Shown here one piece after another: positions 4,390-22,460 of a DNA stretch of 27,240 nt. The DNA is from a virus: the IMG/VR virus record IMGVR_UViG_3300045999_006612, positions 1 through 27,240 of that record. One strand, written 5' to 3'. The translations under genes and the position numbers were made by a program. The notes beneath the pieces were generated by a model. The model made no database searches and was not told where the DNA came from. It saw only the letters and a program-made list of their open reading frames with translations. Position 1 is the first letter of the stretch; each line of letters starts with the position of its first letter.

Positions 4390-4599
4390 TTATTCCTCAT
4401 CTTTTCTTAATGGTATGGTAATTAGCCATATAGCTAGGGATAACACAGTGGCAATTCCCACTATATCCCTTGCTGTTCCAGTTAGGGTTAGCCAGGCAAT
4501 AAAAAAACCTAATATTGTAAATACCTGATTTATGCTTTCTAGAATAGCATCCTTAATCCATCCTAAAAATCCTTTTATAACTTTAATTATTAATTTCAA
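4390..4599 (-). CDS. Small two-helix membrane protein
   Basis: A 69-aa protein with an amphipathic basic N-terminus and hydrophobic segments at about 24-40 (INQVFTILGFFIAWLTL) and 46-64 (IVGIATVLSLAIWLITI), ending RKDEE. This could be a second holin or antiholin. It starts at TTG (4599), preceded by GGAGG in GAGGAGGATAAATTG, and overlaps the stop of the PA14 gene by four bases, so the two are probably co-translated. Confidence 0.65.
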   Translation of the reverse strand: MKLIIKVIKGFLGWIKDAILESINQVFTILGFFIAWLTLTGTARDIVGIATVLSLAIWLITIPLRKDEE

Positions 4600-6707
4600 T
4601 TTATCCTCCTCATCACGGCACCAGCAATTTGTGATGCAATAATTACTGGCACAATTACTTCTTGTGCTTTTTCTCTCTGATCGTCTGTCATGTCGCTACC
4701 TAATTCAGAGAAATTAGATAGTAATTCTCCTACATCCACCGCTAATACAGAGCCAAGTGGGTCTGCCAAAAATGCTTCTGTTTGAACTTCTGTTACTGCA
4801 TCTGCTAATGTAAAGGGCATTGGGGTTTCTCCTGCATCCCCTGCTCTTTCTGCAAACTCAACAAATGCTGAGGCAAGTGCTGGATTAGACTTCATCTGCT
4901 CAGCAATCTGTGCAACTTCTGATGGCTTGATGCCGAGATCTCCAGCAATTTCTGCCTTTGCTTCTTGGGTCAAAGACTTAAGAGTTTGGCTAACTGCTGC
5001 TACTTGCTCAGGTGAAAGTGTAACTAAATTATTATCCTTGCTTGTAAGGTTAGCAATAACTCCAGACAAATCCTCTGCTGTACCCGTTCCTTTTTCAGGA
5101 ATAAGTTCAGCCAACTCTTCATCTTCTATTTCAGGATTAATTGTTGGTTCTGGTTCAGGGGTTGGCTCTTCTGTAGGTTCTGGAGTCGGTTCTTCAGTTG
5201 GCTCTACGACTGGCTCTTCTGTTGTTTCTGGATCTGGGGTAGGCTCATCAGTTGGCTCTGGCTTAGGGTCTTCTGTAGGCTCTTCTGTAGGCTCTGAAGA
5301 AGGTTCTGGGGTAGGTTCTTCAGTAGGTTCCTCAGTTGGCTCAGTTGATGGTTCTGGAGAAGGTTCTGGGGTAGGCTCAACTGTAACCTCTGGTGTTGGT
5401 TCTGTCTTTGGCATATTTGCAAGGGCAGTAGCGATAGCAGCATTAATCCTTTGCTTTTCTTCAAAATCCCATTGAGCAATATACTCTTCTTCAGCAGCAG
5501 TAATTGCATTATTCATATCTTCAATTGCATTATTATAATCTTCCATGGCATCATTTTTTTCATCTAATGCTTCTTGAGTATTATCTTGTGCAGTTTCATA
5601 ATATGTTTGTGCATTATTTTTATTAGTATTAGCAGTTGTTAATTCACTGTTATATGTATTTAACTTTGAAAGTTCCGTGTTATAAATAGATAACTTATCA
5701 TTATAAGTTGCTAAGGCAGATGTTCTTGTTGCAAGTGCTTGGTTATAAGCATTTATTTGTTCTTGTGTTGGTCCTGGACCAGAAGAAAATGTATTAAGAT
5801 TACAACTAAAGTTTTCTCCCCATACTCTTGGATTTCCAGCATAGTCACAACCTGCTCCAGTCCAGCCTCCAGGAATTGCCCAGCCAAGATGGTAGTCTCC
5901 AGGACCTCCGCCGTTATACCACCAAATTTCTACACCCAATGTTTTGTCTTCGCTAACATCATATACTGGGGAATAGTCACTCCAAGTAGTTCCTTGCTCT
6001 TGCCAGTTATCAACTGCAAGGGATCCGTCTACATACATTCTAAATCCATCATCTGTATATCCTGCAAAATATGTTGTTGTAAACCATGATGGAACAGTAA
6101 TTGTTCCAGTAAATTTAACAACAAAATTCTCATATCTATTTCCACAAACTGGAAGATACATAGAGTTTGAGTTCCAAGTACCAGAACAAAGAACGGATCC
6201 TGGGGTAGCGACATTTCCTTGTCTGACAAGAGCATAAACAGTATAGGCTAGCCCTGTTCCTCCAGCAGCCTGCATATTAGATTGTGTGGTTTGAAGATTA
6301 ATATTGGCTATATTTAATGCTTCTTGAGCATTATTTCTATTTGTTAATGCAGTTGAAACTATTGGGGTTTGATCATCTACCGCCTTTTGTGCTGCATTTA
6401 ATAATGATATTTTATTGTTGAGATTAGATAGGGCTTGTGATTCCGCATCTACTGCTTGGCTATATTCTTCTTCTGCTGCAATCTTATTATCTCTTGTAAG
6501 TACAGCCGCATCATACTTATCTTCAGATATTGATATTAATTCTTGTGTTTGTGCTTTGTCTGTTAAATTTTCTAAGTTATAATTTAATTCAGCAATTCTT
6601 TCTGCTGCAAGTGATATAGGATCATCGCCATTTGCTGGTGTCATAAAAAGCCAGCCAAATGCAAGCAATGTTGCAGCTGTTATTCTAAATAATTTATTCC
6701 TAGTCAA
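4596..6707 (-). CDS. Secreted PA14-like protein with coiled coils and Pro/Glu/Thr repeats
   Basis: A 703-aa protein starting at TTG (6707), seven bases after AGGAG. An N-terminal signal peptide (about 1-27, ending near PANG) is followed by a coiled coil (30-150), a PA14-like beta domain (about 150-305, with YAGYTDDGFRMYVDG, WWYNGGGPGDYHLGW), a second coiled coil to about 435, a long repeat of PTPEP/EEPTPEP units (about 440-545) and a helical C-terminal domain ending in a hydrophobic stretch. PA14 domains usually bind sugars or sit in adhesins and fibres. The signal peptide suggests export from the infected cell, unusual for a virion protein. Function is inference: adhesion, surface masking or a lysis-related role. 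It heads a short operon with its own promoter. Confidence 0.75.
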   Translation of the reverse strand: MTRNKLFRITAATLLAFGWLFMTPANGDDPISLAAERIAELNYNLENLTDKAQTQELISISEDKYDAAVLTRDNKIAAEEEYSQAVDAESQALSNLNNKISLLNAAQKAVDDQTPIVSTALTNRNNAQEALNIANINLQTTQSNMQAAGGTGLAYTVYALVRQGNVATPGSVLCSGTWNSNSMYLPVCGNRYENFVVKFTGTITVPSWFTTTYFAGYTDDGFRMYVDGSLAVDNWQEQGTTWSDYSPVYDVSEDKTLGVEIWWYNGGGPGDYHLGWAIPGGWTGAGCDYAGNPRVWGENFSCNLNTFSSGPGPTQEQINAYNQALATRTSALATYNDKLSIYNTELSKLNTYNSELTTANTNKNNAQTYYETAQDNTQEALDEKNDAMEDYNNAIEDMNNAITAAEEEYIAQWDFEEKQRINAAIATALANMPKTEPTPEVTVEPTPEPSPEPSTEPTEEPTEEPTPEPSSEPTEEPTEDPKPEPTDEPTPDPETTEEPVVEPTEEPTPEPTEEPTPEPEPTINPEIEDEELAELIPEKGTGTAEDLSGVIANLTSKDNNLVTLSPEQVAAVSQTLKSLTQEAKAEIAGDLGIKPSEVAQIAEQMKSNPALASAFVEFAERAGDAGETPMPFTLADAVTEVQTEAFLADPLGSVLAVDVGELLSNFSELGSDMTDDQREKAQEVIVPVIIASQIAGAVMRRIN

Positions 6708-6760: not shown

Positions 6761-6949
6761 TCATTTAGGATTATCTGTTTTATAAAACCCAGATCCTTTA
6801 AATTGAATTCCAAATGGTGTGAAATGTCTTGTCATTAATGACTCACAAACATCACATTTATAAATAGATTCGGTATCCATAATACCTCTTGTTATTTCAA
6901 TGATTGGATGTTCTTCATCATCAATACAACGATATTCGTATACTGGCAT
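6761..6949 (-). CDS. FmdB-like zinc-ribbon protein
   Basis: A 62-aa protein that opens MPVYEYRC, the hallmark of the FmdB/CxxC_CxxC_SSSS family, with CDVC at residues 32-35. The first knuckle is degenerate: only C8 is present and the second Cys is missing, with H14 the nearest possible substitute. The C-terminal FKGSGFYKTD is also typical of the family. FmdB-like proteins are small putative regulators of unknown target. ATG overlaps the thermonuclease stop (TAATG), so they are co-expressed. Confidence 0.8.
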   Translation of the reverse strand: MPVYEYRCIDDEEHPIIEITRGIMDTESIYKCDVCESLMTRHFTPFGIQFKGSGFYKTDNPK

Positions 6950-7356
6950 TACTTCCCGCTCTTTTTTCTCGCTTTTGCTAAAGCATCAAAATCTTTGACC
7001 TTAGTCTCTCCCATATATCCCCACGCATGTCCATCATTAATCATTTTTTGATTGATAGAAATGTCAGACCCGTCTAAAAATACCCAACCTAAAATTCTTC
7101 CATACTTTTCTGATGAATCCATTTTTTCTGTTTTAATAACAACTGTCTTTGCTGAATCAATTGCATTCTTTAAATATGCTTTAGCTTCAAGTCCAAGGGC
7201 TTTTTCCATCTTATCTGATGTGCGACTTTCTGGTGTATCTATTCCAGCTAATCTTACTCGTGAACTAAATGAGATATCAAATCCAAGATCTATGTCAACA
7301 TCGATTGTATCTCCGTCCACAACCTTGCTTACTTTCTTTACATAGTACTCAAACAT
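6949..7356 (-). CDS. Thermonuclease (SNase-like nuclease)
   Basis: A 135-aa protein covering the OB-fold SNase domain: VVDGDTIDVDIDLG at about 12-25 with metal-binding Asp residues, RVRLAGIDTPE (catalytic Arg and Glu) at about 33-43, and KYGRILGWVF with the second catalytic Arg at about 84-93. Ca2+-dependent cleavage of DNA and RNA is the family activity. It has no signal peptide, so it should act in the cell, for example in host DNA breakdown. AAGGAG lies five bases before the ATG. The gene is preceded by its own promoter and a structured leader with a terminator-like hairpin, suggesting controlled read-through. Confidence 0.9.
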   Translation of the reverse strand: MFEYYVKKVSKVVDGDTIDVDIDLGFDISFSSRVRLAGIDTPESRTSDKMEKALGLEAKAYLKNAIDSAKTVVIKTEKMDSSEKYGRILGWVFLDGSDISINQKMINDGHAWGYMGETKVKDFDALAKARKKSGK

Positions 7357-7367
7357 TTTATCTCCTT

Positions 7368-7395
7368 AAAAATGAGCAGTTTATAGACATGCTCA
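7368..7395 (-). terminator. Terminator-like hairpin ahead of thermonuclease
   Basis: Stem TGAGCA (7390-7395) with TGCTCA (7373-7378), an 11-base loop and five T (7368-7372) in the transcribed direction. The stem is short, so termination may be partial. It sits between the structured leader and the AAGGAG of the thermonuclease gene. Confidence 0.5.
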
Positions 7396-7453
7396 GGTCC
7401 ATCCTACGGGTAGCGTCCCGTCATCTGCGACTCCCCAGTGACGGGGTGCAGAT
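7373..7453 (-). ncRNA. Candidate structured leader RNA or small RNA
   Basis: About 80 bases, visibly richer in G and C than the flanks. In transcript order the segments are ATCTGC (7453-7448), CCCCGTCA (7446-7439), GGGG (7436-7433), GCAGAT (7428-7423), TGACGGG (7423-7417) and CCCGT (7410-7406). ATCTGC pairs with GCAGAT and CCCC with GGGG; ACGGG pairs with CCCGT. Alternatively CCCGTCA pairs with TGACGGG (7 bp), which excludes the inner hairpin or forms a crossing pair. The -10 box at 7458-7463 places the transcript start at the edge of the first stem. I do not recognise any known riboswitch class. Confidence 0.5.
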
Positions 7454-7457
7454 TTCT

Positions 7458-7463
7458 ATTATA
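7458..7463 (-). promoter_or_regulatory. -10 box (TATAAT) before the structured leader
   Basis: TATAAT overlaps the stop codon of the Hsp20 gene. Transcription starting about seven bases on, near 7451, would begin at the first stem of the leader. The -35 region (CACGTA at 18 bp) is weak. Confidence 0.55.
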
Positions 7464-7935
7464 CTATTTCTTTCTTCTTTTTACGTGATAAGGGAGCAAA
7501 TACCTTTTCTTCTGGTGTAAACGAATCAAGAATTTCAAATTGTTTTGGTTTTGCTTCTTCTGGAACTAACTTAACAATAAGAACACGAAGGACGCCATTT
7601 TCCATGACAACCCCTGTTACGTTCATATATTCAGATAAAGAAAATGTTCGTGTAAATGCTCTTGCACCGATTCCTTTATGAATATACTTGTTTTCGTCTT
7701 CCTGCGAAGACCCTTTAATCGTTAAGACATTTTTTTCTTGCTCAATAGAAATGTCTTCTTTCTTAAATCCAGCCAAGGCTAGTTCGATCATATAGGTATC
7801 CTCGCTTACCTCAACCAAATTGTATGGTGGGTAGCTTGTTGAATTATGCATTACCTTTTCGAGATCTTGAAAATGGCGATCCCAACCAATAAAAAAAGGA
7901 TCCTTAAAAAGATCCAGTGAGAATGTGTTAACCAT
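7459..7935 (-). CDS. Hsp20 small heat-shock protein
   Basis: A 158-aa protein with an alpha-crystallin domain at about 45-130: DTYMIELALAGFKKEDISIE, VLTIKG, and the closing ENGVLRVLI (the GxL signature strand). Family members hold unfolding proteins in an ATP-independent way, as cytoplasmic oligomers. Phage Hsp20 genes are known, notably in cyanophages, where a capsid-folding or stress role is proposed; the same here is inference. AAGGAGG six bases before the ATG is a strong ribosome site. It has its own promoter just downstream of the tRNA-Gly. Confidence 0.93.
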   Translation of the reverse strand: MVNTFSLDLFKDPFFIGWDRHFQDLEKVMHNSTSYPPYNLVEVSEDTYMIELALAGFKKEDISIEQEKNVLTIKGSSQEDENKYIHKGIGARAFTRTFSLSEYMNVTGVVMENGVLRVLIVKLVPEEAKPKQFEILDSFTPEEKVFAPLSRKKKKEIV

Positions 7936-8001: not shown

Positions 8002-8012
8002 CCATTTTTTTG

Positions 8013-8083
8013 AGCGGATGATGAGAATCGAACTCACCCCTTCTGCTTGGAAGGCAGAGGCACTACCAATATGCAACATCCGC
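8013..8083 (-). tRNA. tRNA-Gly(UCC)
   Basis: Full cloverleaf of 71 bases: acceptor GCGGATG/CATCCGC, D arm with TTGGTAG, anticodon arm TCTGC-CTTCCAA-GCAGA giving anticodon UCC, T arm with GTTCGATT. Discriminator U. CCA is not encoded. Reads GGA glycine codons, frequent in this AT-rich genome. Confidence 0.95.
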
Positions 8084-8087
8084 AGAG

Positions 8088-8161
8088 CACCCTCGGCAGG
8101 AATCGAACCTGCGACGCAGACCTTAGAAGAGTCTCGCTCTATTCCGCTGAGCTACGAAGGT
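8088..8161 (-). tRNA. tRNA-Arg(UCU)
   Basis: Cloverleaf of 74 bases: acceptor ACCTTCG/CGAGGGT, D arm AGCTCAGCGGAATAGAGC, anticodon arm AGACT-CTTCTAA-GGTCT giving UCU, T arm GCAGG-TTCGATT-CCTGC, discriminator G. It reads AGA, a codon the AT-rich phage uses often. CCA is not encoded. Lies four bases upstream of tRNA-Gly, so both are probably cut from one transcript. Confidence 0.95.
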
Positions 8162-8685: not shown

Positions 8686-8696
8686 TACCTTTCTTG

Positions 8697-8770
8697 TACA
8701 CCAGGTAGGACTTGAACCTACGATAGCCGAATTATGAGTTCGGGGCCTTAACCAACTTGGCTACTGGTGC
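8697..8770 (-). tRNA. tRNA-Met or tRNA-Ile2 (anticodon CAU)
   Basis: Cloverleaf of 74 bases: acceptor GCACCAG/CTGGTGT with a G-U first pair, anticodon arm CCGAA-CTCATAA-TTCGG giving CAU, T arm GTAGG-TTCAAGT-CCTAC, discriminator A. It lacks the C1-A72 mismatch and the GGG/CCC anticodon stem of an initiator, so elongator Met or lysidine-modified Ile2 (reading AUA) remain. Ile2 would suit an AT-rich phage; the sequence alone does not decide. Confidence 0.93.
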
Positions 8771-22363: not shown

Positions 22364-22387
22364 TTATTTCCGCCGTTTCTTTTCATG

Positions 22388-22460
22388 TACCAAAGGTGAG
22401 ATTCGAACTCACGCTGTATAGATTTTAAGTCTACCGCCTCTGCCGCTGGGCTACTCTGGC
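22388..22460 (-). tRNA. tRNA-Leu(UAA) with short variable loop
   Basis: Cloverleaf of 73 bases: acceptor GCCAGAG/CTTTGGT with a G-U first pair, anticodon arm GTAGA-CTTAAAA-TCTAT giving UAA (reads UUA), variable loop only ACAGC, T arm GTGAG-TTCGAAT-CTCAC, discriminator A73. Bacterial tRNA-Leu is class II with a long variable arm, so this is atypical, although A73 is what leucyl-tRNA synthetase needs. Charging could be by another synthetase; the anticodon is unambiguous. Confidence 0.9.

What the first reader, a model, noticed from the sequence alone, without database searches (positions are those of the whole stretch)
7368..7463. Promoter, GC-rich alternative-pairing RNA and terminator-like hairpin between Hsp20 and thermonuclease genes
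The roughly 100 bases after the Hsp20 stop hold a TATAAT box, several complementary segments that can pair in two mutually exclusive ways (7417-7423 with 7439-7445, or 7448-7453 with 7423-7428 plus 7433-7436 with 7443-7446 and 7406-7410 with 7417-7421), then a hairpin with five U before the thermonuclease ribosome site. This is the layout of a switching leader or a small terminated RNA. I recognise no known riboswitch or ribozyme class. What signal it would read is open; nuclease expression timing is a possible reason.
Basis: partly seen in the sequence, partly recalled or inferred. Interest (0 to 1): 0.65.

Follow-up and report, generated by a model that had tools for sequence, protein, structure and literature searches.

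The report
Widespread phage RNA pseudoknot after genes
The stretch between two genes of this freshwater virus encodes a folded RNA that ends in a tiny knot-shaped element, and the same knot turns up just after gene ends in phages of many unrelated bacteria, where I found no description of it, so it looks like an overlooked general part of phage messenger RNAs.

Summary
All are conserved in about 60 related phages. The proposed switch pairing (7445-7439 with 7423-7417) is not conserved. The "terminator" stem is half of a compact H-type pseudoknot, 7400-7374: stem GGAC/GUCU, loop CU, stem GAGCA/UGCUC, loop ending AAAC. Its U5 run is absent from the closest relatives.

The pseudoknot is the real find. 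It occurs in hundreds of unrelated phages: Staphylococcus, Lactobacillus, Bacillus, Arthrobacter, Rhizobium, roseophages, crAss-like, Chaseviridae, cyanophages. Both stems covary almost perfectly: 323 of 324 variants found without requiring pairing still pair. No Rfam 15 family matches at the stretches tested. It sits just after stop codons, rarely closer than 5 nt and most often 6-7 nt, followed by about 9 G-poor A/U-rich bases. Neighbouring genes are functionally unrelated, so it is a generic mRNA element, not a gene-specific switch. Most likely it is a mechanical roadblock that fixes or protects RNA ends (inferred). Termination or pausing is the main rival.

The parts
7459..7935 (-). Hsp20 / alpha-crystallin gene upstream of the RNA
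   Evidence: Pfam HSP20 E 9.7e-17; kept upstream of the RNA in about 60 relatives
7458..7463 (-). TATAAT box (probable -10) overlapping the Hsp20 stop codon
   Evidence: Lies a few bases upstream of hairpin A in 118 of 124 occurrences of the hairpin-A pattern in fetched loci, mostly IMG/VR; no clear -35, so the promoter is inferred
7423..7453 (-). Hairpin A: AUCUGC/GCAGAU (7453-7448 with 7428-7423) plus CCCC/GGGG (7446-7443 with 7436-7433)
   Evidence: Helix 1 99.4% and helix 2 96.0% of cells paired in 31 relatives
7406..7421 (-). Hairpin B: ACGGG/CCCGU with loop ACGCUA
   Evidence: Covaries ACGGG/CCCGU, GCGGG/CCCGC, UUCGGGU/ACCCGAA, UUUGAGC/GCUCAAA in relatives; optional module, replaced or absent in some
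7385..7400 (-). Pseudoknot stem 1 and its enclosed bases: 7400-7397 (GGAC) with 7388-7385 (GUCU); loop 1 CU 7396-7395; loop 2 U 7389
   Evidence: Position 1 pair: 133 distinct variants, all standard pairs, found without requiring pairing; S1 types GAC/GUC, GUC/GAC, CAC/GUG, GGC/GCC, CGC/GCG in units of this leader
7374..7394 (-). Pseudoknot stem 2: 7394-7390 (GAGCA) with 7378-7374 (UGCUC); loop 3 7384-7379 ending AAAC (7382-7379)
   Evidence: S2 pair 2: 96 of 97 G-C; S2 pair 3: 80 A-U, 13 U-A, 1 C-G, no mismatch
7365..7373 (-). A/U-rich tail after the pseudoknot (AUUUUUAAG), running into the ribosome site
   Evidence: In 706 instances the 9 bases after the pseudoknot lack G in 412 cases against 74 in a control stretch
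6949..7356 (-). Staphylococcal-nuclease-like gene downstream (ribosome site 7367-7362)
   Evidence: Pfam SNase E 5.1e-17

Best explanation
The 7463-7374 minus-strand region encodes a modular structured RNA that starts at a TATAAT box with hairpin A, carries an optional hairpin B and ends in a compact H-type pseudoknot just before the nuclease ribosome site. The pseudoknot belongs to a widespread, apparently undescribed class of phage RNA element that usually sits a few bases after a stop codon and is followed by about 9 G-poor, A/U-rich bases. Shown here: the fold by covariation, its spread, its position, its indifference to gene function, and the lack of conservation of the proposed switch. 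Inferred: it acts mechanically, as a knot too compact to be pulled open easily. It is placed just beyond the reach of a terminating ribosome so that it stays folded, stops ribonucleases, and so sets or protects the end of the upstream message and separates the fate of neighbouring cistrons. In this phage the unit would act as a 5' stabilising leader for the nuclease message, or as a short stable RNA.
For: Unbiased covariation scans: 133/133, 96/97 and 94/94 variants pair. 671 structural instances against 1 in shuffled DNA. Stop-to-knot distance: 13 cases in all at under 5 nt or overlapping the stop, then 14 at 5, 68 at 6 and 55 at 7. In long gaps the knot sits within 15 nt of the stop in 27/60 and 22/50 cases, but within 25 nt of the next start in only 5/60 and 3/50. 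It stays about 15 nt after the stop when the downstream gene is on the other strand. Neighbours on both sides are functionally unrelated. G-poor 9-nt tail. Up to 8 copies per contig; six between successive genes in 2.5 kb of L441. Loop lengths 2/1/7 with an A-rich loop 3 match mechanically strong plant-virus pseudoknots (own knowledge).
Against: No transcript, RNA-end or decay data were available, so the roadblock function is not tested. In this Hsp20 family a TATAAT precedes the unit and 102 of 117 units have a ribosome site within 45 nt, which looks like a leader rather than a 3' element. In L184, L185 and L208 the knot sits 8 nt after a TATAAT. U-rich tails and new promoters just after the knot in some phages would equally suit termination.
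Confidence: 0.45

Rival explanations
1. The pseudoknot is a transcription terminator or pause signal in which the knot replaces the usual hairpin and the A/U-rich tail is the weak RNA-DNA hybrid; where the tail is U-rich it ends transcription, elsewhere it only pauses or attenuates.
For: At least 6 T in the first 10 bases after the knot in 27% of cases against about 3% of control windows. Some operon ends read TTTATTTTTTATC or ATTTTTTTATTC with no canonical terminator. TTGAC-17/19-TAnnnT promoters follow in 13 of 375 cases without a nearby start against 2 when shuffled. The tail is about the length of the RNA-DNA hybrid.
Against: 331 of 706 instances have a ribosome site and start within 60 nt, with little room for a new promoter. 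T content is the same whether the next gene is co-directional or not. C is not depleted as in U tracts. The tail of the window's nearest relatives is AUUAAUAUU.
Confidence: 0.25
2. It acts on the ribosome: a barrier at the mRNA entrance of the terminating ribosome that hinders read-through, sliding or re-initiation and so insulates neighbouring cistrons, or conversely a translation element for the next gene.
For: The floor at 5 nt and mode at 6-7 nt from the stop match the spacing at which viral pseudoknots meet the ribosome (own knowledge). An A/U-rich single-stranded stretch after a pseudoknot near a ribosome site is the layout of the T4 gene 32 operator (PMC3014915).
Against: The spacing has a long tail beyond 15 nt. 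Stops are mostly UAA, not leaky ones. In long gaps the knot is far from the next start, and it is kept where no co-directional gene follows.
Confidence: 0.12
3. It is a ligand- or protein-responsive leader or aptamer (riboswitch or operator) that controls the downstream gene.
For: Loop bases CU and AAAC are nearly invariant; in the present family the unit usually precedes a ribosome site.
Against: Downstream genes share no function. The knot tracks the upstream stop rather than the start. The alternative pairing is not conserved. The knot does not include the ribosome site.
Confidence: 0.08
4. The unit is a small stable noncoding RNA gene of the phage whose 3' end is the pseudoknot.
For: A TATAAT precedes a chain of exchangeable structured modules. 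In L730, L776, L794 and L795 the bases after the knot read as a U-rich tail and then, from the sequence, an opposite-strand gene; in L731 and L740 a new TATAAT-like box follows.
Against: Only 15 of 117 units lack a nearby downstream start. The knot alone, without promoter or modules, is the common form elsewhere.
Confidence: 0.1

Closest known systems
Luteovirus-type compact H-type pseudoknot (beet western yellows virus frameshift site)
   Same: Loop lengths 2 / 1 / 7, loop 1 starting with C, A-rich loop 3 next to a short stem 1, spacing of about 6-7 nt from a codon at the decoding site (own knowledge of that family)
   Different: No slippery site; follows UAA stop codons in non-coding DNA of phages; 5-bp stem 2; loop 3 ends in AAAC; no shared ancestry shown
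T4/T2 gene 32 autoregulatory pseudoknot
   Same: Phage mRNA H-type pseudoknot followed by an unstructured A+U-rich stretch (PMC3014915)
   Different: That one is a 5' operator for one protein upstream of one gene; this one follows stop codons beside unrelated genes in unrelated phages, with a different sequence
Intercistronic RNase III hairpins of T7 and REP-type 3' stabilisers
   Same: Generic structures between cistrons of polycistronic messages, repeated in one genome, indifferent to gene identity (own knowledge)
   Different: Those are plain hairpins restricted to certain phages or hosts; this is one conserved pseudoknot across many host phyla
Intrinsic (Rho-independent) terminator
   Same: Structure followed by an A/U-rich, sometimes U-rich, tail soon after a stop codon
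   Different: Two crossing stems with conserved loops, tail often lacks a U run, and about half of the instances are followed at once by a ribosome site
STAXI and manA RNA motifs (Weinberg 2010)
   Same: Phage- or mobile-element-associated candidate RNAs with pseudoknots; manA lies near ibpA (Hsp20) genes (PMC2864571)
   Different: Rfam scan of the window element and of related loci gives no match to either; manA precedes ibpA, the present unit follows Hsp20

Membership tests
Intrinsic (Rho-independent) terminator | Single G+C-rich hairpin | tested here: not met
   The 3' hairpin stem is stem 2 of a pseudoknot; stem 1 covaries 133/133
Intrinsic (Rho-independent) terminator | Run of U directly after the stem | tested here: inconclusive
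   UUUUU in the window, but AUUAAUAUU in nearest relatives; at least 6 T of 10 in 27% of all instances
Intrinsic (Rho-independent) terminator | Ends transcription | not testable with these tools
   No RNA data; a start codon with ribosome site lies within 60 nt in 331 of 706 instances
Switching leader (riboswitch / attenuator) | Two conserved mutually exclusive helices | tested here: not met
   Alternative helix 70.5% paired against 70.6% shuffled, no compensatory pair
Switching leader (riboswitch / attenuator) | Consistent set of downstream genes | tested here: not met
   Nuclease, DNA polymerase, primase, PhoH, scaffold and others
H-type pseudoknot of the compact luteovirus kind | Two crossing stems with compensatory changes | tested here: met
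H-type pseudoknot of the compact luteovirus kind | Short loop 1 beginning with C, A-rich loop 3 | tested here: met
   Loop 1 CU (rarely CC); AAAC at the end of loop 3 in 109 of 117 units where loop 3 was not constrained
H-type pseudoknot of the compact luteovirus kind | Base triples and programmed frameshifting | not testable with these tools
   No 3D or functional data; mostly non-coding position, nothing that suggests frameshifting
T4 gene 32 operator | Located upstream of an SSB gene and bound by its product | tested here: not met
   Downstream genes are unrelated; in Arthrobacter phage Amigo the knot follows, not precedes, the SSB gene
Rfam 15 families (incl. STAXI, manA, wcaG) | Match to covariance model | tested here: not met
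   No match to the RNA on its own strand up to E = 10 in the window; only tRNA at gathering score in 20 related loci; no match at the element in 3 further loci at E <= 5

The most novel reading that the evidence does not exclude
A single RNA pseudoknot class, used by tailed phages of most major bacterial phyla, that works as a universal end-guard or processing block in phage polycistronic messages, placed just beyond the terminating ribosome: a host-independent RNA part shared across the phage world by descent, transfer or convergence.
Probability: 0.4. Interest if true: 0.9.

Novelty: new variant of a known kind. Interest (0 to 1): 0.8.

Why it matters
A 26-nt RNA fold with near-perfect covariation, found in phages of Firmicutes, Actinobacteria, Proteobacteria, Cyanobacteria and Bacteroidota (and in metagenome bins of candidate phyla) and unmatched in Rfam at the loci tested, would be one of the most widely shared RNA elements known in phages. 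It often lies just before the scaffold and major capsid genes, where phages must change expression sharply within one message, so it may explain how that step is achieved. It gives a short, testable handle on phage mRNA processing that can be studied in named laboratory phages, and a compact part that may be portable between bacterial hosts.

Tried and rejected
Exact search with the hairpin B sequence found nothing in IMG/VR; homologues were found through the proteins instead. Switch pairing: rejected. Known Rfam class: rejected. Gene-specific regulation: rejected. Stop-codon read-through: disfavoured because UAA dominates (247 UAA, 75 UAG, 27 UGA). Promoter directly upstream as the general rule: rejected, 6 of 706 against 5.6 in shuffles, although it holds in the Hsp20 family. 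Canonical terminators after the knot at convergent ends are no rarer or commoner than elsewhere (4 of 33 against 88 of 709), which does not discriminate; the gene caller used there is crude. E. coli chromosomes: no match. Literature: nine completed searches of open-access papers found no description; subscription papers and preprints were not searchable.

Full report
WHERE IT IS. The window is a 27,240-base virus record. Its terminase is 62-63% identical to those of Streptomyces phages such as Francob and Gilson. The finding lies on the minus strand between an Hsp20 gene (7935-7459) and a staphylococcal-nuclease-like gene (7356-6949; Pfam). Read 5' to 3': TATAAT (7463-7458, overlapping the Hsp20 stop), hairpin A (7453-7423), hairpin B (7421-7406), AGGAU, then GGACCUGAGCAUGUCUAUAAACUGCUC (7400-7374), AUUUUU, AAGGAG, AUG. 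By energy alone the fold is only modestly better than shuffled sequence (z -2.25).

CONSERVATION OF THE WHOLE UNIT. Searching IMG/VR with the Hsp20 protein gave 80 loci, and nearly all of those read carry the same kind of RNA directly after the Hsp20 stop. In 31 distinct leaders of the same architecture, aligned without a structure model, hairpin A and both stems of the 3' element are 98.6% paired (slid controls 38-47%), with 3 pairs changed on both sides. Hairpin B covaries freely (ACGGG/CCCGU, GCGGG/CCCGC, UUCGGGU/ACCCGAA, UUUGAGC/GCUCAAA). A scan for hairpin A alone gave 124 distinct places in the fetched loci. Of these, 118 have TATAAT just upstream and 117 have the 3' element downstream; the rest are mostly truncated or chance matches. 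Between the two lie none, one or two of several exchangeable modules, so the unit is modular. The gene after it varies: nuclease, a small protein beginning MPVYEYKC, and others.

THE SWITCH IS NOT THERE. The alternative helix (CCCGUCA with UGACGGG) is paired in 70.5% of cells, the same as shuffled (70.6%), with no compensatory change and with one pair broken in 26 of 31 sequences.

THE "TERMINATOR" IS A PSEUDOKNOT. The bases of the hairpin loop and flanks also pair: GGAC (7400-7397) with GUCU (7388-7385), crossing GAGCA (7394-7390) with UGCUC (7378-7374). To test this without bias I scanned IMG/VR for variants in which one pair was forced away from its usual letters on both sides but not required to pair. 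For stem 1 pair 1, 133 distinct variants: 93 C-G, 29 A-U, 9 U-A, 2 U-G, no mismatch. For stem 2 pair 2, 96 of 97 G-C. For stem 2 pair 3, 80 A-U, 13 U-A, 1 C-G, no mismatch. Four of nine letter combinations would pair by chance. The tally counts distinct contexts, some of them from related phages. In the 117 units of the window's own family stem 1 appears as GAC/GUC, GUC/GAC, CAC/GUG, GGC/GCC and CGC/GCG (pairing of stem 1 was required in that listing). Loop 1 is CU (rarely CC) and loop 3 ends in AAAC. In 5.7 Mb of fetched loci there are 671 distinct structural instances against 1 after shuffling; these loci were largely fetched with patterns containing CU and AAAC, so the loop conservation is partly imposed by the search except in the Hsp20 family.

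HOW FAR IT REACHES. Titles of the latter span Lactobacillales, Lachnospiraceae and other Bacillota, Alphaproteobacteria, Bacteroidota, Cyanobacteria, Chloroflexota, Campylobacterota, Patescibacteria and others. Several sit beside phage head genes, but a few follow apparently cellular genes, such as feoB in a Nautiliaceae bin. Among named phages, short queries hit 165 records in one search, including Staphylococcus Phietavirus, Lactobacillus, Bacillus megaterium phages, Arthrobacter phage Amigo and Rhizobium phages. Others hit Roseobacter SIO1, Lentibacter and Celeribacter phages, crAss-like cr7_1, E. coli Chaseviridae and Cylindrospermopsis phages. In Firmicutes phages the knot lies upstream of the scaffold and major capsid genes; in roseophages after ribonucleotide reductase; in Amigo between SSB and a tRNA. 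E. coli genomes gave no match. Rfam 15 has no match at the elements tested, and open-access literature searches found no description.

WHERE IT SITS. Outside the Hsp20 family the distance from the upstream stop codon to the knot has a sharp floor: 13 of about 600 instances overlap the stop or lie under 5 nt from it, then 14 at 5, 68 at 6, 55 at 7, then a decline. Of 500 instances with both neighbours called, 454 have the upstream gene and 431 the downstream gene on the same strand. When the downstream gene is on the other strand the knot still sits about 15 nt after the stop; when the upstream gene is on the other strand no proximity remains. In long co-directional gaps it hugs the stop and not the next start (27/60 and 22/50 against 5/60 and 3/50). 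So it is primarily a post-stop element. The 9 bases after it are G-poor (no G in 412 of 706, against 74 of 706 in a control stretch) and A/U-rich; 27% have at least 6 T in 10 against about 3% in control windows. The neighbouring proteins share no function on either side. Some phages carry several copies, up to 8 per contig, with six between successive genes in L441.

HOW IT PROBABLY WORKS. Shown: a conserved pseudoknot, post-stop position with a floor, G-poor tail, indifference to gene function, wide spread. From established knowledge: pseudoknots with these loop lengths are mechanically strong, and the ribosomal mRNA helicase lies about 5 nt beyond the decoding site, so the floor would keep the knot folded while the upstream gene is translated. 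Inferred: the knot is a roadblock to ribonucleases that sets or protects message ends and separates the fate of neighbouring cistrons. The chief rival is transcription termination or pausing; U-rich tails and new promoters after the knot in some phages support it, and the many instances followed at once by a ribosome site speak against it. In the window the unit follows a probable promoter, so there it would be a structured 5' leader of the nuclease message, or a short RNA when transcription ends at the knot; 102 of 117 such units have a ribosome site within 45 nt.

LIMITS. No RNA data. Gene calls around the instances are by simple ORF rules. The promoter has no clear -35. Published work behind subscription, and preprints, were not searchable, so an earlier description cannot be excluded.

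Noticed in passing
L441:2853-5368 (minus-strand coordinates): Six copies of the pseudoknot within 2.5 kb of one virus contig, most with a tail like AUAUAUUUUUUGUC; stem 2 differs between copies but stays paired.
   Followed up: partly
L057, L060, L073, L723 and others, between hairpin A and the pseudoknot: An alternative module GUCGGGGGAGACAGCGAC...AAAUAACUG that could itself be a small pseudoknot (GUCG/CGAC plus CAG/CUG) replaces or joins hairpin B.
   Followed up: no
L024, L054, L066, L069, L070 after the Hsp20 stop: Another 5' module, GUUCCAUCUGAUGGGACACGGGCAAUAGUUACGCC, replaces hairpins A and B while TATAAT and the pseudoknot stay.
   Followed up: no
L183, L199, L253, L272, L275 upstream of the pseudoknot: A larger structured module after TATAAT (AUUCCGUCAUGAUACAUGCAGUUGC...GAGUACGG) precedes a hairpin and the pseudoknot; a new TACAAT-like box follows in several.
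   Followed up: no
L730:1526-1589 minus strand: Sub-threshold match (27.4 bits, gathering 43, E 0.055) to the ROSE_3 RNA thermometer, by position upstream of the Hsp20 gene; no such match upstream of Hsp20 in the window.
   Followed up: partly
L678:1967-4022: The pseudoknot pattern follows an apparently cellular feoB gene in a Nautiliaceae bin, so the element is not strictly limited to phages.
   Followed up: no
L240, L249, L288 and similar, just after the pseudoknot: In Firmicutes phages the U-rich tail is often followed by UAUGC; in some this opens a very short reading frame before the scaffold gene, in others not.
   Followed up: no
window 8012-8161, 8696-8770, 22387-22460: Four tRNA genes: Gly(UCC), Arg(UCU), Met(CAU), Leu(UAA).
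   Followed up: no
window 4596-6707: 703-aa protein with a TTG start, a PA14-like domain and a long PT/E-rich repeat; probable virion or adhesion protein.
   Followed up: no
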